The position numbers and the translations under genes were made by a program. A stretch of DNA of 58,529 nucleotides from an uncultured Planctomycetaceae bacterium (GTDB lineage Bacteria > Planctomycetota > Planctomycetia > Pirellulales > Pirellulaceae): positions 1 to 58,529 of the forward strand of contig CAIPEB010000090.1 of the NCBI GenBank assembly GCA_903863885.1, read 5' to 3'. Under the pieces are notes generated by a model, which worked only from the letters and a program-made list of their open reading frames with translations, did not search any database and was not told the DNA's origin. Of this stretch, positions 1,645 through 11,255 are shown in pieces. How positions within the stretch are numbered: position 1 is the first letter of the stretch; every line of letters begins with the position of its first letter.

Positions 1645-3099
1645 ATGAACACCAGAGATGCCATCGCCCTGACAAGGACCATTGCACCCGATCTGCGATT
1701 TGTGCCGGTCTACTTGTTTCGATCATCGCAGGCGTTTCCGCGTGCCCTCACACCGTTTGGTGCGTTGGGGTACACCGGCCCATTCCTGGACGTCACCTGC
1801 AGAACCTGGTTGGGTTCCTCGTGGCGAGGGCGGGGCGCCGCGATCTTCGTCAACGACGTGGCCATCGACGAGTATTGCAGCGACATCGGGATGGATCCGC
1901 GTCAGAAGTTTCTCGGCACGTTCCTGCACGAAGTTGCACACGTTCTGTCGCGAGAAATGCAGCTGTCTCCAGTCACCGACTTCCAAGCCGAAATGATGGT
2001 GACACTCACCGAACGATGGGTGGCCAGCCCAATTTGTGTCCGACAAGCTCCGTGGATTGGTCACGATGCCGCGTGGCTTCGCATTCTGTTGCATCTGCTC
2101 TACCGGGCGAATCAAGAACTTAACGAACGCATTCCGCTGAGCCTCGCTGTTCCAAACGGGAATTACGAGCTCAACACGTACGGCTTCGCGATCGACATCG
2201 GCGATGAGCCTGAACGGCTGTCGCACTTGAGCCTTGCCGAGATTCAATCTGTTTCCCCGCCTGAACCGTATCGCGAAAGATGGCTGCGTGAGACGCGGCA
2301 GTGGTTCGATCACTTGCCGGACCATGAACTATCTGATCTTGAAACGCTGGCGTGTGCCAAGCGATTGTTTCCCGTTTCTCAAAAAGGAGGATCGAAAGTG
2401 GTAACGGATCTGCTGGAAAAAATTCGCCGGAAACTGAAGGACAATGCGGCGAAGGCCGAATCGCGATTTGCAAAACTCGCGGGCCAAATCGCGGACGGAA
2501 CGGAACCGCCTTTGGCGACCGTCTCGGAAACTCTGGCTGATTCAGGCAAGACGGTGGACGACCTCAGCCAGAAGGTCTCCGATATCCGCCGTCGACGTGG
2601 TCTGCAGGCCGCGATGGAGAGATCGAAAGAGCTCGAGCAGGAGCGTTCGCAGATTGCCGCGAAGGTGGCGAAAGCCAACCAGGATCTCGAGGCGGCTGAA
2701 AGACGGCACAACGACGTGACCTGGCCGCTTCAGATTCGCATTGACGAACTAAACGCGGCGATCGCGGAGGCCAACAACGCCCGGCAACAACTACTGGTCT
2801 CCTGCAACGACGCGGAGCTTCTTGCCCAATTGGACGAAGTGTCGCGTGAATCGGAGAAATGCGTTGCCAGCCAGGCCCGAGCCCGTGGCGAGATCGAGCG
2901 ATTCAAGGAAGAACTCGACGGTCCGCGTGGTTTACGGTCGCATCTCAAGTACGAGCGAAACGCTGTCACCGAAGACGACGTTCGCCGGGTCGAAGGGTTT
3001 CTCCGCGACGCCGAGCAGCAACTTGCCACGCTGCAGTCCGAAGCCGCTGAATTGAAAGCCAAGCGGCAGCGGATCGAGGGCCTGATGATCGACGCTTGA
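1645..3099 (+). CDS. HEXXH putative metalloprotease domain followed by long coiled coil
   Basis: The 484-residue product begins MNTRDAIALT. Near residue 90 it has FLHEVAHVLSRE, a zinc-peptidase-type HEXXH helix, followed by a conserved-looking AEMMVTLTERW segment that may supply the third ligand. From about residue 252 the sequence is almost all heptad-like and charged (EKIRRKLKDNAAKAES, KELEQERSQIAAKVAK), typical of a long coiled coil with a loose resemblance to PspA-like proteins. Protease activity is inferred from the motif only. A strong internal ribosome binding site and GTG at 2398 could make the coiled-coil half separately. It lies downstream of, and close to, the gene at 926. Confidence 0.6.
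   Translation: MNTRDAIALTRTIAPDLRFVPVYLFRSSQAFPRALTPFGALGYTGPFLDVTCRTWLGSSWRGRGAAIFVNDVAIDEYCSDIGMDPRQKFLGTFLHEVAHVLSREMQLSPVTDFQAEMMVTLTERWVASPICVRQAPWIGHDAAWLRILLHLLYRANQELNERIPLSLAVPNGNYELNTYGFAIDIGDEPERLSHLSLAEIQSVSPPEPYRERWLRETRQWFDHLPDHELSDLETLACAKRLFPVSQKGGSKVVTDLLEKIRRKLKDNAAKAESRFAKLAGQIADGTEPPLATVSETLADSGKTVDDLSQKVSDIRRRRGLQAAMERSKELEQERSQIAAKVAKANQDLEAAERRHNDVTWPLQIRIDELNAAIAEANNARQQLLVSCNDAELLAQLDEVSRESEKCVASQARARGEIERFKEELDGPRGLRSHLKYERNAVTEDDVRRVEGFLRDAEQQLATLQSEAAELKAKRQRIEGLMIDA
2381..2400 (+). promoter_or_regulatory. Internal ribosome binding site and GTG start
   Basis: AAAAAGGAGG at 2381-2390 is followed by a 7-nt spacer and GTG at 2398-2400, in frame with the HEXXH gene. 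This is a better initiation site than the one at 1645. Initiation here would give a 233-residue, almost purely coiled-coil protein starting VVTDLLEKIRRK. The alternative is chance, since the stretch encodes a QKGGSK linker. Confidence 0.5.
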
Positions 3100-3111
3100 T
3101 TCATGTCGTGT

Positions 3112-3160
3112 CTCGCGTCCGGCGACCGCCTTGAGCCATTGGGCGGTTTGCCGGCGCGAG
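3112..3160 (+). terminator. GC-rich hairpin after the coiled-coil gene
   Basis: The arm 3112-3130 (starts CTCGCG, ends CCGCC) pairs with 3142-3160 (starts GGCGG, ends CGCGAG) around an 11-nt loop. There are about 16 pairs with a small internal loop. It starts 13 nt after the stop codon of the upstream gene, as a terminator or mRNA-stabilising hairpin would, but no U-tract follows. It could also be a protein-binding or repeat element. Confidence 0.5.
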
Positions 3161-3240
3161 TGCGACTGCCGCCCGTTGCGTGCGGTAACCCATCCAGGAC
3201 GAATGATCCTTACCACCTTTGCGAAAAGGGACAAACGCCA

Positions 3241-3597
3241 ATGAAAACGAAACAACCAAAGATCGACAGCAATCGGAAGCGGGCGAAGCTGTCGGATTTC
3301 ATCGCTCGTGGCACGACAACCTATTCCGTGGAAATCGATCTGATTCGCAATGAATCGATAATCCATTGGATCGTGCTGCTGACGCAGGAACTGAAAGACG
3401 CGATGGCAGCGGCGAACTATCTCGCCGAGTCGTTCAACGCGGCCGCCGCGGACTGGTTTGACGGAAACGTCATCACCAACGATCAGCTGCTGAAAGTGTC
3501 CGTACTGAAGTATTCCCGAGGAACGCTGCTCGATTTTGTCTACGATGTGCAGCCGGTCAACGCGTTCTGCCTGCCGGAAGATGACGACCAGGTGTAA
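3241..3597 (+). CDS. Protein of unknown function (118 aa)
   Basis: The ATG at 3241 follows AAAAGGGAC at 3224-3232. The product starts with a very basic stretch (MKTKQPKIDSNRKRAK) and continues with predicted helices (IIHWIVLLTQELKDAMAAAN) and an acidic tail (LPEDDDQV). It has no membrane segment or known motif. It is the last small gene before the structured leader of the recombinase operon. No function can be assigned. Confidence 0.5.
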   Translation: MKTKQPKIDSNRKRAKLSDFIARGTTTYSVEIDLIRNESIIHWIVLLTQELKDAMAAANYLAESFNAAAADWFDGNVITNDQLLKVSVLKYSRGTLLDFVYDVQPVNAFCLPEDDDQV

Positions 3598-3760
3598 CCA
3601 ATGACGGCCACAGCCGGGCGAGTCGCCGAACGACGCGGAAACTTGCCGCAAGGTTCACGAGCACAGCGATGTTGACTTCGAGTTTGGTGGTCGGCTATGC
3701 TCGTGGCGGATCGAGGTTGCTCGGTCCTGGGCTTAAGAACCCAACGTAGACAGGTGGCAA

Positions 3761-3916
3761 TCTGATGTTTTCGATCAGAGCGGGAAGGCCCGCTAGCTTG
3801 GGACTGCGCAGAAGCTGTGATCCGGACAGCCGGGGAGCAAGGCGCAATCGGACGCGTCTACGCGTCTTCTTAACCGAGTTGGCGGGCCTTTCCGTTTCTT
3901 GTTGCGCCCACGGCGC
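3761..3916 (+). ncRNA. Candidate structured leader RNA of the recombinase operon
   Basis: Positions 3781-3801 pair with 3874-3894 in 21 consecutive base pairs, four or five of them G-U wobbles, which points to RNA rather than DNA symmetry. Inside this stem, 3805-3809 pairs with 3842-3846 and encloses a hairpin (3814-3818 with 3826-3830); a second hairpin forms from 3851-3856 and 3861-3866. Flanking hairpins are 3761-3766 with 3774-3779, and 3904-3908 with 3912-3916. The last ends just before the GGAGGAA ribosome binding site of the gene at 3929. It could be a cis-regulatory leader, an attenuator (TTTCTT follows the long stem) or a recombination site that folds. It matches no riboswitch class I know. 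Confidence 0.5.
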
Positions 3917-3928
3917 GGAGGAAGCCAC

Positions 3929-4198
3929 ATGCGAGCCTCTCGACTCATGTTCGCAGGCGACGAGATTCTGAAGCACGCCAGCGAGATCACGGTCCGTCTA
4001 GTACGAGTGCAGGGACAGGTTGCCTTGCACTACGAGATCCACGGCAACGTCAACGATCCGATCTGCGATCGATTCACTCAGGGCGATGACGAGGACGACG
4101 ACTGCGACGTGCTGGAATCGCAGCCCGAGGTCGACCCCCACGAGCTGGCCCGCATGCTGCTGGGCGCCATGCAGCCGGCGAAAGGGGGTGCCGTATGA
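3929..4198 (+). CDS. Small acidic protein, first gene of recombinase operon (89 aa)
   Basis: The ATG at 3929 is preceded by GCGGAGGAAGCCAC, a strong ribosome binding site directly after the structured leader. The product starts MRASRLMFAGDEILKHAS, has a beta-like middle, an acidic run (TQGDDEDDDCD) and the tail AKGGAV. The tail is encoded by the GAAAGGGGG sequence that also forms the ribosome binding site of recombinase 1, and the stop overlaps that gene's start (ATGA at 4195). It may be a regulator or accessory factor of recombination; that is inference from position only. Confidence 0.55.
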   Translation: MRASRLMFAGDEILKHASEITVRLVRVQGQVALHYEIHGNVNDPICDRFTQGDDEDDDCDVLESQPEVDPHELARMLLGAMQPAKGGAV

Positions 4199-5400
4199 CT
4201 CCAGAAACCGTTCTGGATTTCTTCCACCGAGTTAGCGCCCGCAAGCGATCACTCAGCGCGGTCACCATCGACCAGTATTCCAGCTTTCTGCGGATCATCG
4301 AAAATGCGATGGGGCGTCAGGTGCTCATCGATGAACTGACAGAAACGATGATTCGCCAGTGCACGGAATGGATGATCAAGCAGAAATACACGCTGTCCTA
4401 TCAGCGAGTCTGCCGCGATGCAGCGGCCAAGGTGCTCTGCGACTACGCGGAACAGACGCTGCGGCAATCGGTCAGCGAAAACCCGTCCCCTGAATGGCCG
4501 CTGCTGTTGTTCCTTCGCGATGTGTACGAAGTCGAACGGAATATCAAGCCCTGCACGGCGAGACGCTACGACAAGTCAATCCGGACGTTTGGCGAGTTTG
4601 TGGGGCATCCGGTACGGCTGAATGAACTCAACGACAACCTGGCCTCCCGTTGGGTGAAGTGGCTGGGAGACGGGGGAGCACGTCCCAAGACGGTTCACGG
4701 ATTGCGACGCGACGTCCTGACGGTGTGGCGGCGCGCGGCGAAGATGAAACTCTGCCAGCCGCCAGGTGATGATATCCGCCAGGTGAAGATACCGAGGCCG
4801 ATCCCGGATGCTTGGAGCGTTGAGGAACTGTCATCCATCGTCAACGCCTGCCAGCGGATCAGCGGTTTTCTCAGCAACGGATTGCCGAGATCCAGGTACT
4901 TCCGCTGTCTGATCGAAGTTACCTACGAAACGGGCTTGCGTCGTTCGGACGTCCTGCAGCTGAATGTGTCCGATTTCAACGAGAACTGGATGATTTCGAC
5001 CATCCAGGACAAGACGCTCGACGGCCATGTGTGCTCCGTGTCGGCCGAGACGGGCAAACAGTTCATGTGGCTGGCGGATCGGCTCAAGGAGTGCGGGGAT
5101 AAGCATTGGTCGCAGCCGCTTCGCTATCCCGGCAACATGCGTCGTTGCTACGCGGTCCTGACTCGCATCCGGAAACTGGCAGGCATCACCAGCCGCGGAG
5201 CGCTGCAGAAGCTCCGCCGCACCGGGGCGACCTATGTCGAGTCGCAGTACCCGGGCGCGGCAATGCGTTTCCTGGGGCACCGCACGCCCGGTCTGGCGTA
5301 CAAACACTACGTTGATCGAACCAAGCTGGGCCCGCCGCCGCGTCCGCCGGCATTGGTTCTTTCGCTGTCATCCGTGGAACAGAAAGGGGGCACGCCATGA
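4195..5400 (+). CDS. Tyrosine recombinase 1 with two core-binding domains
   Basis: The 401-residue product is a tyrosine recombinase. The catalytic positions read R249 (TGLRRSDVL), K273 (QDKT), R341 (LQKLRRTGAT), H362 (FLGHRTP) and Y372 (KHYVD). The His usually two residues after the start of the second box is Gln338 here. Residues 5-90 and about 101-185 each look like a SAM-like core-binding domain, so the N-terminal part is doubled; typical family members have one and are about 300-350 residues. The second domain ends LTVWRRA and is followed by PDAW, a pattern shared by the other two recombinases. Start and stop overlap neighbouring genes by 4 nt (ATGA), so translation is coupled. Confidence 0.88.
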   Translation: MTPETVLDFFHRVSARKRSLSAVTIDQYSSFLRIIENAMGRQVLIDELTETMIRQCTEWMIKQKYTLSYQRVCRDAAAKVLCDYAEQTLRQSVSENPSPEWPLLLFLRDVYEVERNIKPCTARRYDKSIRTFGEFVGHPVRLNELNDNLASRWVKWLGDGGARPKTVHGLRRDVLTVWRRAAKMKLCQPPGDDIRQVKIPRPIPDAWSVEELSSIVNACQRISGFLSNGLPRSRYFRCLIEVTYETGLRRSDVLQLNVSDFNENWMISTIQDKTLDGHVCSVSAETGKQFMWLADRLKECGDKHWSQPLRYPGNMRRCYAVLTRIRKLAGITSRGALQKLRRTGATYVESQYPGAAMRFLGHRTPGLAYKHYVDRTKLGPPPRPPALVLSLSSVEQKGGTP

Positions 5401-5840
5401 CAACGCAACTCACTCGCAGACAAATGCTGTTCACGGCCGCCGCACCTCTTTCGGCCGGCGTGATTGCCGCCCCTTCGAAGCGATCGCCAAGTCTCGTCGA
5501 GCTGGCTCCGCTGCTGGCAAGCGCTGAAGCCGAATCAAACGATGGCTGCGGGTATGTCCGGCGGTTCGGTGCGATCCAGTGGAAAGAGAACGTCGTCATG
5601 TTGTACGCCAGGTGCGAGGTCAACCTGGCGGAACAGTTGCTCGAGATGGTCGGACGAATCACCGAATCGCCGCTGGCATGTTCGTGGGCACGTACCGGCG
5701 GGGCGTGGTGCCTGTTCGTCAACGGAGACTTGCCAGCAGTTCGCGAACGACTGGCGGCCATCGTTCCGCCCGGCTGGCGTCAATCAACGGATCGCGTCGC
5801 CAGTGTCTGCTGGGGCGATCCGAAAGGAGGTGTGGCATGA
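5397..5840 (+). CDS. Small protein with Tat-like signal between recombinases (147 aa)
   Basis: The start overlaps the stop of recombinase 1 (ATGA) after AGAAAGGGGG. The N-terminus, MTTQLTRRQMLFTAAAPL, has the twin arginines followed by a short hydrophobic stretch and AAP, as in Tat signal peptides; cleavage would fall near residue 25. The rest is about 120 residues with cysteines in CGYVRRFG, ARCEVNL, ACSW, WCLF and VCWG. I recognise no family. An exported protein inside a recombinase operon would be surprising, so the Tat reading is tentative. The C-terminus PKGGVA is again encoded by the next gene's ribosome binding site. Confidence 0.55.
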   Translation: MTTQLTRRQMLFTAAAPLSAGVIAAPSKRSPSLVELAPLLASAEAESNDGCGYVRRFGAIQWKENVVMLYARCEVNLAEQLLEMVGRITESPLACSWARTGGAWCLFVNGDLPAVRERLAAIVPPGWRQSTDRVASVCWGDPKGGVA

Positions 5841-7102
5841 CTGGATTCAAACAGAAGCGTATCAGCCACGCCCGGGCGAACAGCCTGGTTCGCTATTTTC
5901 ACCGCCATTTCTATCCGGACAAGCTGGCCGACAAGTCACCGCACACGCCGACGCAGTACGAGCGGGCAGTCACGAAACTGTGTCAGTACGCGGCCAGGGA
6001 TATCACCATCGGCGAAATCAACGAGCGGATCCTGGACCGTTTCGCCGAATGGTGCATCACTTCCGGCATCGCCTACGAAACCGCCAGGAAGTATCGGGCG
6101 TACGTCCGAGCCATTGTCAGGCATGCTCGCCCTGGAATGTGCCCCAAGCAGTCGGGACGCAGGCCGCACGAAGAACCGCCCGGCGACGATCCTGAGGCGG
6201 AATTGAAACCCGCCGGATCGCTCTGGGAGTTTTTCGAGACCAAGTATCGCCGCCAGCGACTGGCCGGAGGCACTGAGGGACAGGGGCAGCAAATCGAGAT
6301 TGCAATGCGGCGATTGTGCAAGCAACTGGGCCGAGCAGCGATGCTCGCCGATCTGACGGACGAACTGATCCGCGAGCATCAGGCGTGGATGCTCGACGAC
6401 GGATACAGTCCGAAGACGGTCAACAGCGCCTGCGGGCATCTGCTTTCGGTCTGGCGATTCGCGTATCAGTTGCGAGCGATCCAGGAACTGCCGAGAGTGG
6501 CGAGGATTCGGGAATATCAGCGGCTGCCGGTCGCGTGGAAGCTGGATGAATTCGAGCGACTGTTGGACGCCACCAACACGCGCCGCGGGATGTACGGCGA
6601 TGTGCCGGCCGCTCAGTGGTGGCGGGCCTTGCTCCTGGTTGTGTACGACACGGCGATCCGCTGCCGAGCGGTGCTGTCGATCGAGCGGTGCCACCTAGAC
6701 ATCGAAACCGGCTGGCTGATGGTGCCCGCCGAGAACATGAAGGCACGTGTTGAGCAGCGTTTCAAATTAAGCGACCAGACGACAGAGGCGGTGCGGGCGA
6801 TCTGGTTTCCAAGACGTCGATTCCTATTCCCGCACAAGTCGCGAAACTGGTTCCACCGGAACTACGGCCGCTTGCTTGAGGCAGCCGGACTACCGAGGAC
6901 CGCGAGGGACCAACTGCACAAGATCCGCAGGACAACCGCGAGCATCGTCGCGAAAGAAGTCGGCATCGCTGCTGCGGTGCGTCTGCTGGGGCACTCGACC
7001 GAGACGGTGACGAAGAACTACATCGACCCGACGTTCATCTCGACGCATGAAGTTGTCGAATCGCTGCCGCGACCCGTCACCACGAAAGGGGGTGCGGAAT
7101 GA
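5837..7102 (+). CDS. Tyrosine recombinase 2 with two core-binding domains
   Basis: The start is at 5837, after AAAGGAGGTG with 5-6 nt spacing, and overlaps the previous stop by 4 nt. The 421-residue product has the complete catalytic set: R275 (DTAIRCRA), K302 (ENMKAR), H361 and R364 (LHKIRRTT), H386 (LLGHST) and Y395 (KNYIDP). Two core-binding-like domains lie at about residues 14-97 and 128-212; a polar linker rich in Pro and acidic residues joins them. The second ends LSVWRFA, followed by PVAW, as in its neighbours. It is the only one of the three with His at the first position of the second box, so it may be the most canonical catalyst. Confidence 0.88.
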   Translation: MTGFKQKRISHARANSLVRYFHRHFYPDKLADKSPHTPTQYERAVTKLCQYAARDITIGEINERILDRFAEWCITSGIAYETARKYRAYVRAIVRHARPGMCPKQSGRRPHEEPPGDDPEAELKPAGSLWEFFETKYRRQRLAGGTEGQGQQIEIAMRRLCKQLGRAAMLADLTDELIREHQAWMLDDGYSPKTVNSACGHLLSVWRFAYQLRAIQELPRVARIREYQRLPVAWKLDEFERLLDATNTRRGMYGDVPAAQWWRALLLVVYDTAIRCRAVLSIERCHLDIETGWLMVPAENMKARVEQRFKLSDQTTEAVRAIWFPRRRFLFPHKSRNWFHRNYGRLLEAAGLPRTARDQLHKIRRTTASIVAKEVGIAAAVRLLGHSTETVTKNYIDPTFISTHEVVESLPRPVTTKGGAE

Positions 7103-8610
7103 TGCGAATCCAGCGATTCCTGGATGAAGTGATGATGCCGGCACGTCTCGCCGACGCAGCGTCTGGAACTCGCCGCAAGTATCAGACAGTCGTCTCGAAG
7201 TTCAACGAGTACCTCGGGCATGACGCGGGCCTCGATGAACTGTCGGCGGATTCGATCAACGTGTTCCTTGCCTGGTTGGAATCCGAGGGCATGCGGCCTG
7301 AACGCCTGCAAGTGTACCGCACCGTGCTCAGGACGATCGCCAGCGACGCCCACGAGCGAGGACAGCCAACCGGCCCGATGACGGCCACGCAACGCGAGAG
7401 ACGCCGTCAGAAGCTGCAAAGGGCACTCCGCGGACCGAAAGCCAAGATCAAGCGAAGGATCGTCCGGGCTGCCGCGTTGTTCGCCAACGGCCTGACACTC
7501 GAGGAGATCGGCGAGCGGCTGGGAGTCACCGCGCACGCAATCCACAATTGGCGGGGTCGCCATCGCGCCTTCTGGGATTCGGCCTACAACGCAGCGATCA
7601 AAAACACGATTGAAGTGGTCATGCGGAAGGCCGATGGGAATGCAAAGAGTGTTCCGGATGCCGGCTTTTTTGCGCAAACCAATCGTGCGGAAGTGGCGCT
7701 TCAAGCTGCCGGCGAGTCATTGGTAAGACCTCCGGACAATTCCCAATCGTCGAGGACGTTGGCGGAGTTTACCGCTGACTTGTCCGTCGAGCGGAGTTGG
7801 GGAGAAAGCAACCAGAAGAATTACCTGTGTGTGGTGAAACGAATCGAGAAGTGGCACGGACGAACCATGTACGTCACGCAGTTCTCGCGGGACTGGGTGA
7901 ATCGTTTCATCATGGACATGGAGGCGAGCGGATTGTCCGCAGCAACGGTACGCGGAACGAGGGTTCATCTGCTCTCACTGTGGCGTGCAGCCTGTGAAGC
8001 GGAACTGTGCTACGAAGAACCGAAACGCATTCGCAAGGTAAAGCTTCAGATGCCGGCTCCGGAAGCATGGGGGTGTGACGACGTGATTCGCATGCTCGAT
8101 CAGGCCGGAAAGCTAACGAACGAATACCGGTTCAAGGATGGCAAGATTTCGGCGTCAGAGTTCTGGACGGTGGCGGTCCGCGTTCTCTGGGAGACAGGGC
8201 TGCGGATAGGAGACGCAAGAAGGCTTCGCAAAAGCGACATCCGATCGGGAGGTATCATCGTGGTCGTCCAGCACAAGACTGGTCGCGAACACGTTGTCAG
8301 GCTTTCCGGGGGCACGCTAAAAGCCATCAACGCGATGAACGCCAGCGATGACGCGATTCTGCCTTTGAAGTTCAGCCACGAGATGCTACGGCGTGAATTC
8401 AAAGTCCGGATTCTTGATCCCCTTGGCCTAACTGGCTCCCTGAAGAAGATGCGGAAATCGTCGGCCACCAGTGTGGAGCTTCAGCAATTCGGCGCGGGAG
8501 CCCGCCAGTTGGGACACGCACCAGGCAGCAAGATTGCGGCCGTCCACTATCTTGACCCCGCCTTGATCGGCGCCAACTGGCCGATGCCGCAATCCCTGGA
8601 CGTGGAGTGA
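7099..8610 (+). CDS. Tyrosine recombinase 3 with HTH insertion
   Basis: The start overlaps the stop of recombinase 2 (ATGA) after CGAAAGGGGGTG. The 503-residue product has R369 (TGLRIGDA), K393 (QHKTGR), K449 and R452 (LKKMRKSS), H473 (LGHAPG) and Y484 (VHYLDP); Lys is accepted at the 449 position in this family. Core-binding-like domains lie at about residues 3-87 and 219-302. Between them, residues 118-152 form a helix-turn-helix (LTLEEIGERLGVTAHAIHNW), like those of transposases or sigma-like regulators. It ends the operon; a terminator follows 80 nt downstream. The HTH suggests it gives the trio sequence specificity or autoregulation, which is inference. Confidence 0.88.
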   Translation: MMRIQRFLDEVMMPARLADAASGTRRKYQTVVSKFNEYLGHDAGLDELSADSINVFLAWLESEGMRPERLQVYRTVLRTIASDAHERGQPTGPMTATQRERRRQKLQRALRGPKAKIKRRIVRAAALFANGLTLEEIGERLGVTAHAIHNWRGRHRAFWDSAYNAAIKNTIEVVMRKADGNAKSVPDAGFFAQTNRAEVALQAAGESLVRPPDNSQSSRTLAEFTADLSVERSWGESNQKNYLCVVKRIEKWHGRTMYVTQFSRDWVNRFIMDMEASGLSAATVRGTRVHLLSLWRAACEAELCYEEPKRIRKVKLQMPAPEAWGCDDVIRMLDQAGKLTNEYRFKDGKISASEFWTVAVRVLWETGLRIGDARRLRKSDIRSGGIIVVVQHKTGREHVVRLSGGTLKAINAMNASDDAILPLKFSHEMLRREFKVRILDPLGLTGSLKKMRKSSATSVELQQFGAGARQLGHAPGSKIAAVHYLDPALIGANWPMPQSLDVE

Positions 8611-8689
8611 ACCAACGGAAGCGTCCCGTTCCTGCCGCCATCCATAGAACTAGATCGGCGAACGTGGCAACACCTCGAGCGAGACGCGG

Positions 8690-8720
8690 AGCCCGGTGGC
8701 GAAAGCTGCCGGGCTTTTTT
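8690..8720 (+). terminator. Rho-independent terminator after recombinase 3
   Basis: AGCCCGG at 8690-8696 pairs with CCGGGCT at 8709-8715 around a 12-nt loop and is followed by a run of T (to 8720). This is a canonical intrinsic terminator and closes the recombinase operon. Confidence 0.9.
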
Positions 8721-8868
8721 CGTCAGATCGCACAGGATGCGTTTAAACGCACGCAACGCTCTGACGACCCAGATATCGACCTGACTGCTGATCGTGCGTC
8801 AGGCGAAGTCCTGTGCGACGTGTTTCGCCGATTCTTGCCGCGTACAATCGTCGTGGGAGGTTCACCGC

Positions 8869-9099
8869 ATGATTCGATCACGGAAGACCATCAGCAAGCC
8901 GCCGGCATCGCCACGCACGATCTACGACATCCTGCGGCATCCACGAACCGATGCCGAAGAGCACCAGGCCGACGAGCATATCCGGCGTGAGCGTGACCGG
9001 ATTCAAGAGTCGTGGAGCGAACGGGAGCGGGAGAGTCGCGAAGTGCAGTCGGCAGGACCGTGGCGAGCACCGTCGCTTGAGTGGATCGGCGAGCGATGA
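8869..9099 (+). CDS. Small highly charged protein (76 aa)
   Basis: The ATG at 8869 follows GTGGGAGGTTCACCGC, a good ribosome binding site. The 76-residue product has a basic N-terminus (MIRSRKTISKPP) and a long Arg/Glu-rich helix (EHIRRERDRIQESWSERERE). It has no recognised family. It is the last gene before the element's right end and lies beyond the recombinase terminator, so it has its own promoter or none. It could be a small DNA-binding or directionality factor, but nothing in the sequence proves that. Confidence 0.45.
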   Translation: MIRSRKTISKPPASPRTIYDILRHPRTDAEEHQADEHIRRERDRIQESWSERERESREVQSAGPWRAPSLEWIGER

Positions 9100-9140
9100 A
9101 CACAACCCGAAGGCTACTTTTTTTCGAGTGGTCTCTAACG

Positions 9141-9190
9141 GGGGTCAGTGACCCCTCGTAGTGCTTTTTTGTGCTATCTAGTGGGGGTCA
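9141..9190. repeat. Three GGGGTCA repeats near element end (candidate arm-type sites)
   Basis: GGGGTCA at 9141-9147 faces its inverted copy TGACCCC at 9149-9155, and a third direct copy lies at 9184-9190. They are 90-140 bp from the tRNA-Ser break. Clusters of short direct and inverted repeats beside an attachment core are what recombinase arm-binding sites look like. No binding data are available. Confidence 0.4.
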
Positions 9191-9225
9191 AATCCGCATC
9201 AAGCGATGAGTGATGATCTTTTCAG

Positions 9226-9266
9226 AAACATGCGGTTTTCCCGAGTATTTTGCATGTTTTCCGCGG
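9226..9266. repeat. Inverted repeat abutting the tRNA-Ser break
   Basis: AAACATGC at 9226-9233 and GCATGTTT at 9252-9259 are a perfect inverted repeat with an 18-nt spacer. A further small palindromic stretch, CCGCGG, lies at 9261-9266. The repeat is on the element side of the tRNA break and may belong to the attachment site. Confidence 0.45.
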
Positions 9267-9279
9267 ACCAAAGAGCCGC

Positions 9280-9319
9280 GTTTCAAGACTGCCGCCTTAG
9301 ACCACTCGGCCACCCATCC
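9280..9319 (-). tRNA. 5' half of tRNA-Ser(UGA), cut after the anticodon loop
   Basis: Read on the minus strand from 9319, the sequence has a 7-nt acceptor strand GGATGGG, the D-arm pattern GCCGAGTGGTC...AAGGC, the anticodon-stem strand GCAGT and the loop CTTGAAA with anticodon TGA (9283-9285). The expected ACTGC partner strand, variable arm, T-arm and 3' acceptor strand are absent; the sequence continues CGCGGCTC. The break falls after position 38. It is best explained as an integration junction where the element entered the anticodon loop. The missing 3' half should lie at the other end of the element, outside the window. Confidence 0.85.
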
Positions 9320-9725
9320 GTTTTGTGAAGCGTGCACCCTATGCGGATTAAGAAAACAGGGATTCATCCGGACGCCGATGCGCCTCGTACCGATACGTGC
9401 GTGCTTCCCGGAGTTCCCGGTGCTTTAGGTTTACCAAAGGCGAACGCCGGCGCGCAGCCCCCCTCCAATACGGACGAGACGCCCAAATACCACATTCAGG
9501 ACGAACGGCACTCGGCCAACCGTTTTGAACTTCTTTTGGCGGCAGTCTATCGCATCCGGATGCTGGCGCAAAGCATCTCCCTGACACCCGATCGCATCCG
9601 CGTCCCGCGCGTGGTGTTTCTCGTTCACTGCTCCATGTCGATCCGATAATTCCGGCTTGAAGATCCCCTGCCTTATCGCGAAAAATGGCTGCTTCCGTTG
9701 CTCCCTGCCAACCCGAGGTGCATTC
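9320..9725. other. Spacer between tRNA-Ser half and GH32-like gene
   Basis: About 400 bases with no convincing gene on either strand. The part next to 9320 would hold the minus-strand promoter of the former tRNA-Ser gene, and the part up to 9725 the promoter of the GH32-like gene, but I cannot pick out clear -35/-10 boxes. GAGGTG at 9715-9720 is that gene's ribosome binding site. Confidence 0.5.
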
Positions 9726-11255
9726 ATGTCGATCTGCAGACGCCGTGGTACTGAGCCGGTCCCGGGCATTGCATGTGTCTTGTTTCTTCTCTGCCTGGCG
9801 ACCCCGGCGATTGCGGTTGCCGTCGAAGAAGGCGAGATCGCTGCGCCGGCCGGATCGACTGCGAATCCCGGGGCCTCGCAGCAGGCCTCTCCGTCCGCGG
9901 CCTTTGCGGGCGCGCCCAACCCGTTCTTCCTGCCGGAAGGCCGAAAGCTGGGAGATACTTTCCCCTTCTTCAAGGACGGAGTGTGCCACTTGTTCTGCAT
10001 GTGGATGCCGACATTCGGACACTTCACTTCGCGCGACCTGGTTCACTGGGAAAAGCGTCCTCCGACCTCGTTCGGCGGAGCCACCGGTTGCGTCGTGGAA
10101 CATGAGGGCAAGTACTATTTCTTCTACACCGGCGCCCAAAACATCTGCCTGGCGACAAGCACCGACCTGGAACACTGGACTCAGCATTCGGAAAACCCCG
10201 TCCTGAGGGGTGACGACCGCATGTATGCAACCGGCGACTTCCGCGATGCGTTCGTCTTCTTTCACGCGGGCGAGCGGCAATGGTGGATGCTGTTCGGGAC
10301 GCGGCGCGCCGACCGACCGGCCCAGCGGGGCGGCTGCGTTGGACTGGCCAAAAGCCAGGATCTGCTGCGCTGGCAACTCCACACGCCGCTCTGGTCGCCG
10401 GACATCGGGCCGCATGCGGACTGCCCGCAGGTAATCGAGCACAAGGCCCATTGGTATCTGATCTATCTGCAGCGACAGACGCGCTATCGCGTCGCTGACT
10501 CACTCGACGGTCCCTGGCGGCGTCCTCCGATCCGAGACCTGGGTACCAAGTTCAGCGCCGCGGGTTCGCGGCCTGCATTCGACGGCCGGCGCTGGATCAG
10601 CTTTCCATTCCTGCTGGATCTCGAAGGCCAAACGGATCTCGGCCAGTGGGGCTACGGCGGCCCGCTGGCAGTGCCCCGTCAATGGGACTTTCAACCCGAC
10701 GGATCGATCACTCAGCGGCCAGCCGAAGAGATCGTGGCGGCAATGACGGCTCCAACGTCGCGGGAATCGCGCCGCCCGCTCGAAGGCGCCAAGTCACTGG
10801 TTGGTCAGTGGGAACTTCACGATGGTGCAACAGCGCGCAGCCTGAACGCCAGCGGCGGCACGCTTCAACTCGGTGAGTGGCCCGAGAACTTCTACCTCGA
10901 GGCCGATATCACCATCGAAGCCGAAGACGCCGACTTTCACCTGCTGTTCAACGCGAGCGACGACCTGTTGCAGGGCTACCAGTTGGCCATCCGCCCGCGG
11001 CTCGATGTGGCCGACCTGCGCCCGATCTCCCGCTGGGATGTCGACCGGACGCTGGAGTCGGTGCCGTTTGCGATCGAGGCGAATCACCCGACGAAACTGC
11101 GCGTTTTTCGCCACGGCACGATGCTCGACGTGTTCATCGGCGACCGCGCCACGCTGACGCACCGGCTTTACGCGCACCGAGGCGGGCGGGTCTTTCTGGA
11201 GTTTCGAGATGCGACGGGCTGCGTTGCGAATCTGACCGTGCGGCGACTCGAGTAA
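9726..11255 (+). CDS. Secreted GH32-like glycoside hydrolase
   Basis: The start at 9726 is followed by a signal peptide (MSICRRRG..., hydrophobic IACVLFLLCLATPAIA). The 510-residue protein aligns by eye with the GH32 five-bladed propeller: LGDTFPFFKDG holds the nucleophile position D77, GDFRDAFVF the RDP-like D174, and HADCPQVI the ECP box, where the general acid Glu is Asp232. A beta-sandwich-like C-terminal region (about 380-510) follows, as in invertases and levanases. It probably acts on a fructose-containing or related polysaccharide outside the cytoplasm. The Glu-to-Asp change makes substrate and activity uncertain. It is the first chromosomal gene beside the tRNA junction. Confidence 0.75.
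   Translation: MSICRRRGTEPVPGIACVLFLLCLATPAIAVAVEEGEIAAPAGSTANPGASQQASPSAAFAGAPNPFFLPEGRKLGDTFPFFKDGVCHLFCMWMPTFGHFTSRDLVHWEKRPPTSFGGATGCVVEHEGKYYFFYTGAQNICLATSTDLEHWTQHSENPVLRGDDRMYATGDFRDAFVFFHAGERQWWMLFGTRRADRPAQRGGCVGLAKSQDLLRWQLHTPLWSPDIGPHADCPQVIEHKAHWYLIYLQRQTRYRVADSLDGPWRRPPIRDLGTKFSAAGSRPAFDGRRWISFPFLLDLEGQTDLGQWGYGGPLAVPRQWDFQPDGSITQRPAEEIVAAMTAPTSRESRRPLEGAKSLVGQWELHDGATARSLNASGGTLQLGEWPENFYLEADITIEAEDADFHLLFNASDDLLQGYQLAIRPRLDVADLRPISRWDVDRTLESVPFAIEANHPTKLRVFRHGTMLDVFIGDRATLTHRLYAHRGGRVFLEFRDATGCVANLTVRRLE

What the first reader, a model, noticed from the sequence alone, without database searches (positions are those of the whole stretch)
4195..8610. Recombinase trio in which every member has two core-binding domains
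Three tyrosine recombinases lie in one operon, 401, 421 and 503 residues long. Each shows two successive N-terminal segments that look like SAM-like core-binding domains before a single catalytic domain, and each ends the second with a shared L-x-x-W-R-x-A pattern and a P-x-A-W linker. RIT elements have three recombinases but single core-binding domains as far as I know. This suggests a RIT-related but distinct class.
Basis: partly seen in the sequence, partly recalled or inferred. Interest (0 to 1): 0.85.

Follow-up and report, generated by a model that had tools for sequence, protein, structure and literature searches.

The report
Phage-like recombinase trio behind new RNA
Three DNA-cutting recombinases, each with a doubled DNA-gripping domain, sit where related planctomycete prophages keep their integrase, and in front of them lies a strongly conserved folded RNA that matches no catalogued RNA family and precedes integrases of two unrelated kinds.

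Summary
A (401 aa), B (421) and C (503) each carry two SAM-like core-binding (CB) domains before one catalytic domain: all six segments match Pfam SAM_5 on their own, and models of A and C show two four-helix bundles.

The RIT reading fails. A published survey already gives RitA two CBs; A, B and C fall outside the Cupriavidus Rit proteins in a tree, and no inverted repeats of 18 nt or more span the operon. They belong to a planctomycete phage-integrase family whose CB number runs from one to four.

The better find lies just upstream: a ~210-nt structured RNA (3700-3911), four copies in this genome, hits in 29 of 394 relatives, strong covariation over 45 sequences, a hypervariable loop pairing with its own 5' side, and no Rfam match. 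A recombinase usually follows it, often ending at a tRNA gene; in two loci it is a serine integrase.

Best reading: the trio is the integration module at the tRNA-Ser end of a prophage-like element, behind a new phage RNA family. Function is inferred; a conventional integrase beside the intact tRNA-Ser copy is an unresolved rival.

The parts
3700..3911 (+). Structured RNA: pseudoknotted, about 210 nt
   Evidence: Fold z -4.98, 0 of 200 shuffles fold as well; 4 copies in this genome; 45-sequence covariation 0.583 against 0.156 shuffled; pseudoknot test; no Rfam match
3929..4198 (+). s89, small protein of 89 aa, no Pfam family
   Evidence: 80% identical over 86 aa to L011; overlaps A by 4 nt; Shine-Dalgarno-like GAAAGGGGG before A
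4195..5400 (+). Recombinase A: CB 5-101, CB 102-207, catalytic 206-376
   Evidence: 62% identical copy in L011
5397..5840 (+). p147, 147 aa, no family in Pfam, NCBIfam or PHROGs; N-terminus looks like a twin-arginine signal (by eye)
   Evidence: 65% identical copy before A in L011; found in no other of 295 relatives
5837..7102 (+). Recombinase B: CB 16-121, CB 128-234, catalytic 233-401
   Evidence: nearest L012_583 in the catalytic tree
7099..8610 (+). Recombinase C: CB 2-94, HTH insert, CB 220-324, catalytic 323-490
7435..7635 (+). Helix-turn-helix insert of C, residues 113-179 in the model
   Evidence: HTH_23 6.4e-6 on residues 96-212; helices H113-179 in the model
8794..9099 (+). Small ORF (101 aa; shorter start 8869), conserved after A in L011
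   Evidence: 48% identity to L011; related ORF beside the RNA in L072 (cluster 12)
9281..9320 (-). 5' half of a tRNA-Ser(UGA) gene, cut in the anticodon loop: candidate attachment-site end
   Evidence: 39 nt identical to the intact tRNA-Ser at G000:C381, 40 nt on reading both flanks

Best explanation
The operon is the integration/excision module at one end of a prophage-like element lodged in a tRNA-Ser(UGA) gene. A, B and C are three lineages of one planctomycete family of phage tyrosine recombinases and are thought to act together on one attachment site. The CB next to each catalytic domain would grip the core site as in other tyrosine recombinases; the extra CB, and the HTH in C, would bind accessory (arm-like) sites, doing the job of an arm-binding domain by a doubled core-binding domain. 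In front of the operon lies a separate structured RNA of a new family that sits between structural or replication genes and the integrase in related prophages; it most likely regulates the integration module or the lysogeny decision, whatever the recombinase chemistry. Shown: domain doubling, intact catalytic motif residues, RNA structure by covariation, gene order, tRNA fragment. Inferred: joint action of the three, arm binding, RNA function.
For: All six CB segments match SAM_5 alone; models of A and C. Both Arg, the late His and the Tyr are kept in all three and in 5 relatives (R249, R341, H362, Y372 of A). Position: in 13 of 42 RNA loci a tyrosine recombinase gene following the RNA ends within -62 to +108 nt of a tRNA gene; here the operon reads towards the tRNA-Ser piece, 670 nt past C. 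16 of 42 loci have a tRNA within 4 kb downstream, 2 upstream. Phage nature: L011 has a peptidase S49 next to the module, L012 a small terminase and a Clp-type protease; of 85 upstream-neighbour proteins some match PHROGs tape measure, head maturation protease, major head and primase families. RNA: 64 of 65 pairs show double-sided changes, 93.0% of cells paired against 61.2% shuffled; loop-to-5' pairing of 6 bp or more in 44 of 45, against 16.4% of 1980 mismatched pairs. Recombinase within 2.5 kb downstream on the same strand in 21 of 34 relatives' loci with that much DNA held (23 of all 38), upstream in 2 of 33; own genome 3 of 4, upstream 0 of 3.
Against: An ordinary single integrase (408 aa, Pfam Phage_integrase 3.2e-9) sits beside the intact tRNA-Ser in contig C381 and could be the enzyme that used that site. 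The 40-nt block could come from two separate elements; contigs C90 and C381 are not joined, and the one search for an empty site found no relative. In relatives the tRNA beside the recombinase is intact; here it is truncated. Clear virion genes are not recognised in the window's own first 3.6 kb. L072 has the RNA and no recombinase within 2.5 kb. 15 of 38 relatives' loci have no recombinase within 2.5 kb downstream, 2 of them for lack of DNA. Protein-first loci: the RNA is found in 3 of 11 (L039, L042, L045). A and C lack the box II His (Q and K). No binding or recombination data.
Confidence: 0.55

Rival explanations
1. The trio is an accessory recombination system of the element (dimer resolution, inversion, or a nested element) while the conventional C381 integrase does the tRNA-Ser integration.
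For: Single integrase beside intact tRNA-Ser in C381; the 39-nt block occurs only at C90 and C381 in this genome; no RNA found in L014.
Against: The operon occupies the RNA-recombinase-tRNA position seen in 13 of 42 loci. Linkage of C90 and C381 is unproved.
Confidence: 0.25
2. A RIT-type transposable module that carries only itself.
For: Three recombinase genes with ATGA-type overlaps; published RitA also has two CBs (PMC8138268).
Against: Outside the Rit group in the catalytic tree; no spanning inverted repeats of 18 nt or more in 3000-9800; only weak spanning pairs (23 nt 74%, 17 nt 82%, 14 nt 86%); extra genes p147 and s89; doubling in all three.
Confidence: 0.07
3. The RNA guides the recombinases to their target, as bridge RNAs guide IS110 transposases (analogy recalled).
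For: Non-coding RNA next to recombinases with a hypervariable paired loop.
Against: Longest shared word between RNA and own tRNA site averages 7.5 against 7.56 for mismatched pairs over 16 loci; for the loop hairpin 5.5 against 5.75. The RNA also precedes serine integrases (L092, L112).
Confidence: 0.03
4. A decaying prophage remnant without function.
For: L011 lacks B and C; an A fragment survives in L013; the tRNA here is truncated.
Against: All three frames are open, catalytic residues kept, ribosome-binding sites regular.
Confidence: 0.1

Closest known systems
RIT elements (recombinase in trio)
   Same: Three adjacent overlapping tyrosine recombinase genes; RitA reported with two CBs (PMC8138268 passages).
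   Different: Not in the Rit group; all three doubled; extra genes inside and before; no terminal inverted repeats found; a structured RNA in front; phage setting.
GInts (ginABCD islands)
   Same: Three recombinases plus a small protein at one end of an integrated island; all four genes needed (PMC5385486, abstract and parts 1-2 of 6 read).
   Different: GinC lacks the first Arg, here all three keep it; p147 lies between A and B, not last. No Gin sequence was compared.
Single-CB planctomycete and phage integrases (L015, L016, L008, L019, L020)
   Same: Same catalytic family (1e-63 to 1e-80; all five trained the model).
   Different: One CB, 275-290 aa, single gene.
Tyroviruses (Bacillus phages with three tyrosine recombinases)
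   Same: Three recombinases in one temperate phage (PMC9703825 passages).
   Different: There the three genes are dispersed.
int-alpA RNA (RF02996)
   Same: A known RNA near integrases by its name (details recalled).
   Different: 71 positions against 212; it occurs as a separate match about 0.7 kb from the new RNA in L066.

Membership tests
Tyrosine recombinase | Catalytic Arg, Arg, His, Tyr | tested here: met
   Invariant in A, B, C and five relatives; Phage_integrase domain
RIT element | Three adjacent overlapping recombinase genes | tested here: inconclusive
   B and C overlap; p147 separates A and B
RIT element | ~34-bp terminal inverted repeats (PMC10214605) | tested here: not met
   None of 18 nt or more spans the operon; weak 14-23 nt pairs; the pHG1 control was swamped by an 834-nt duplication
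RIT element | Members belong to the RitA, RitB, RitC groups | tested here: not met
   Separate in the catalytic tree with 5 pHG1 Rit proteins, support 0.89
RIT element | Two CBs in RitA only | tested here: not met
   Two in each of A, B, C. The first RitA CB was not detected in pHG1 by Pfam or my model, so the published statement was not reproduced
GInt | GinC-like member without the first catalytic Arg | tested here: not met
GInt | GinD homologue | not tested
   No Gin sequence was fetched
Rfam RNA families | Match to any of 4227 models | tested here: not met
   None at E<=1 in 12 kb; four chance-level matches (E 1.6-9) in 311 nt; gathering scan of 20 loci gave 3 tRNAs and one int-alpA, none at the RNA's place as I locate it
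Planctomycete tyrosine recombinase family of L008, L015, L016, L020, L037-L047 | Grouping by catalytic domain | tested here: met

The most novel reading that the evidence does not exclude
The RNA is an undescribed RNA family of planctomycete temperate phages that controls or takes part in the integration module whatever the recombinase chemistry. Its hypervariable loop, matched to its own 5' strand, could let RNAs of the same phage type recognise each other (domain-swapped pairing), giving type-specific control of lysogeny. Beside it, core-binding domains have multiplied up to four per recombinase as a home-grown substitute for an arm-binding domain, in heteromeric integrases.
Probability: 0.3. 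Interest if true: 0.82.

Novelty: new variant of a known kind. Interest (0 to 1): 0.62.

Why it matters
Multi-recombinase modules (RIT, GInt) are poorly understood; why three enzymes are needed for four strands is an open question in the papers seen (PMC3414803, passages). A family whose core-binding number varies from one to four with related catalytic domains gives a natural series to test what the extra domains do. The RNA family, if functional, would be a new regulator in phages of a phylum for which one literature search (six phrases) found no paper on its phages.

Tried and rejected
RNA as a target guide: tested on 16 loci, no signal. RNA tied to tyrosine recombinases: rejected, since serine integrases follow it in L092 and L112. 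Hammerhead or group I intron: considered by eye, no Rfam match. RIT filing: rejected as above. Empty site: GH32-like neighbour searched in 98 genomes, only the own genome matched. p147 as a wider marker: only this genome among 296, no relative in viral contigs. C in plasmids and B in phages: no match at 1e-5. Rfam gathering scan covered 20 loci. Literature on doubled CBs: searches returned no further case than RitA among the listings seen; 8 of 10 paper searches used, all papers known by listings or passages except GInt (abstract and parts 1-2 of 6).

Limits: gene calls in L072-L111 are from a home-made codon scorer. The 45-sequence alignment was fitted to the model's nested structure, which favours those pairs; the pseudoknot was not in the model. 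38 of the 42 relatives' RNA hits were fetched. Two antisense matches (E 0.0035 and 0.0042) were dropped before counting. The kink-turn reading is by eye and recalled. Of 124 same-strand upstream proteins listed, 85 went to PHROGs. CB counts: 69 distinct proteins, 0:15, 1:39, 2:10, 3:3, 4:2; of the ten with two, L039_663 has its second after the catalytic domain and L045_629 has them far apart.

Full report
Setting. The window is the whole of contig C90 of an unnamed planctomycete genome of 11.0 Mb in 789 contigs. The operon reads: s89 (3929-4198), A (4195-5400), p147 (5397-5840), B (5837-7102), C (7099-8610); neighbouring genes overlap by 4 nt and a GAAAGG(A/G)GG motif precedes A, p147, B and C.

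Check of the claim. Six N-terminal pieces were searched apart: each matches SAM_5, and the piece between C's two CBs matches HTH_23. AlphaFold gives A helices 6-16, 22-39, 50-62, 67-92, then 103-115, 119-136, 147-159, 164-183, then a catalytic domain; C repeats this with an HTH region at 113-179 in between. The nearest solved structures to A are lambda integrase and Xer proteins.

Family. A's nearest catalytic relatives are single-CB integrases L015 and L016 of a Planctomycetales MAG (support 0.92), B's is L012_583 of this genome (0.98), C's is L037_432 (0.84); five Rit proteins of pHG1 and the C381 integrase fall on the other side. CB number over 69 distinct proteins: 0 in 15, 1 in 39, 2 in 10, 3 in 3, 4 in 2. 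The four-CB proteins are L042_637 and L045_632. A at 1e-30 occurs in 1 of 392 phylum genomes, the own one; C at 1e-25 in 8 of 296 including the own.

In the own genome. The copy L011 (C639) has RNA, s89, p147, A and the small end ORF, with p147 before A and no B or C, next to a peptidase S49 gene. L012/L073 (C641) has a three-CB recombinase after the RNA, near a small terminase and a Clp-type protease. L013 (C627) keeps only a C-terminal A fragment.

The RNA. DNA just before the operon (3705-4198) is 82% identical to L011, more than the 69-74% of the other aligned pieces of 100 nt or more. It folds with z -4.98. A model from two copies found four in this genome and 46 hits in 30 of 395 genomes (42 hits in 29 of 394 relatives). 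Independently, three of eleven loci fetched by protein similarity (L039, L042, L045) carry it upstream of their recombinases. In a 392-genome phylum sample the second model hits 3, all of the same order or nearer. Covariation: 93.0% of 2387 cells paired, score 0.583, shuffles 0.156, none of 500 reaching it; slid versions at most 0.092. G-U pairs are frequent, which favours RNA over folded DNA. Pseudoknot: the loop of helix 11 pairs with the segment after helix 3; 6 bp or more in 44 of 45 (the exception, L097, is cut by its contig end), 7 or more in 35 of 45, against 16.4% and 4.3% of 1980 mismatched pairs. A conserved AAGC-NNU-GA...GA-GC element looks like a kink-turn (by eye, recalled). TTTT within 24 nt after the long helix occurs in 20 of 45, so a terminator-like end is suggested for fewer than half.

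What it stands beside. Relatives' loci: recombinase downstream on the same strand within 2.5 kb in 21 of 34 with that much DNA held (23 of all 38), upstream in 2 of 33; own genome 3 of 4 and 0 of 3. Of the 23, 22 are tyrosine recombinases and one (L092) a serine integrase. The viral contig L112, found by an RNA-derived motif, holds capsid, portal and Mu-F-like genes, the RNA (1.2e-29), then a large serine integrase, all on one strand. tRNA genes lie within 4 kb downstream in 16 of 42 loci (15 on the opposite strand), upstream in 2; in 13 a recombinase gene ends within -62 to +108 nt of the tRNA. Upstream neighbours include tape measure, head maturation protease, major head and primase matches.

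The end of the element. A 40-nt 5' half of tRNA-Ser(UGA) lies at 9281-9320, cut in the anticodon loop; the intact gene is in C381 with a different 5' flank and a single integrase beside it. Either one element has the trio at one end and that integrase at the other, or two elements used one site. This is not settled.

Mechanism. Inferred: A, B and C form a mixed complex on one att site, with the catalytic-proximal CBs on the core and the extra CBs on arm-like sites. The RNA probably regulates the module; the guide idea was tested and not supported.

Verdict. The doubled CBs are real, the RIT link is not supported, and the strongest new result is the RNA family.

Noticed in passing
window 3700-3911; L074-L111, L039, L042, L045, L112: Undescribed structured RNA family before prophage integrases, the main by-product of this work.
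   Followed up: yes
L112 (IMG/VR contig, 9139 nt): Viral contig with capsid, portal, Mu-F-like genes, the RNA and then a serine integrase on one strand.
   Followed up: yes
L042:1582-3495, L045:3187-5085: Recombinases with four tandem core-binding domains.
   Followed up: partly
L045:1301-3190; L039:3879-5870: L045_629 has a catalytic-like match between two core-binding matches; L039_663 has a core-binding match after the catalytic domain.
   Followed up: no
L044, L046, L047: Related recombinases with C-terminal helix-turn-helix domains.
   Followed up: no
L018:618-1016: A short reading frame on a viral contig runs from an unrelated start into a C-terminal recombinase A fragment (frame read by eye); L013 has a similar fragment.
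   Followed up: partly
window 5397-5840: p147 starts with a twin-arginine-like signal, odd for a gene in a recombinase operon.
   Followed up: no
window 1645-3099: 484-aa protein with an HEVAH metalloprotease-like motif and a coiled-coil-like tail; related protein in L088.
   Followed up: no
L066:2453-2522: int-alpA RNA (RF02996) about 0.7 kb from a copy of the new RNA.
   Followed up: no
L014:9991-11217: Ordinary single integrase beside the intact tRNA-Ser(UGA).
   Followed up: partly
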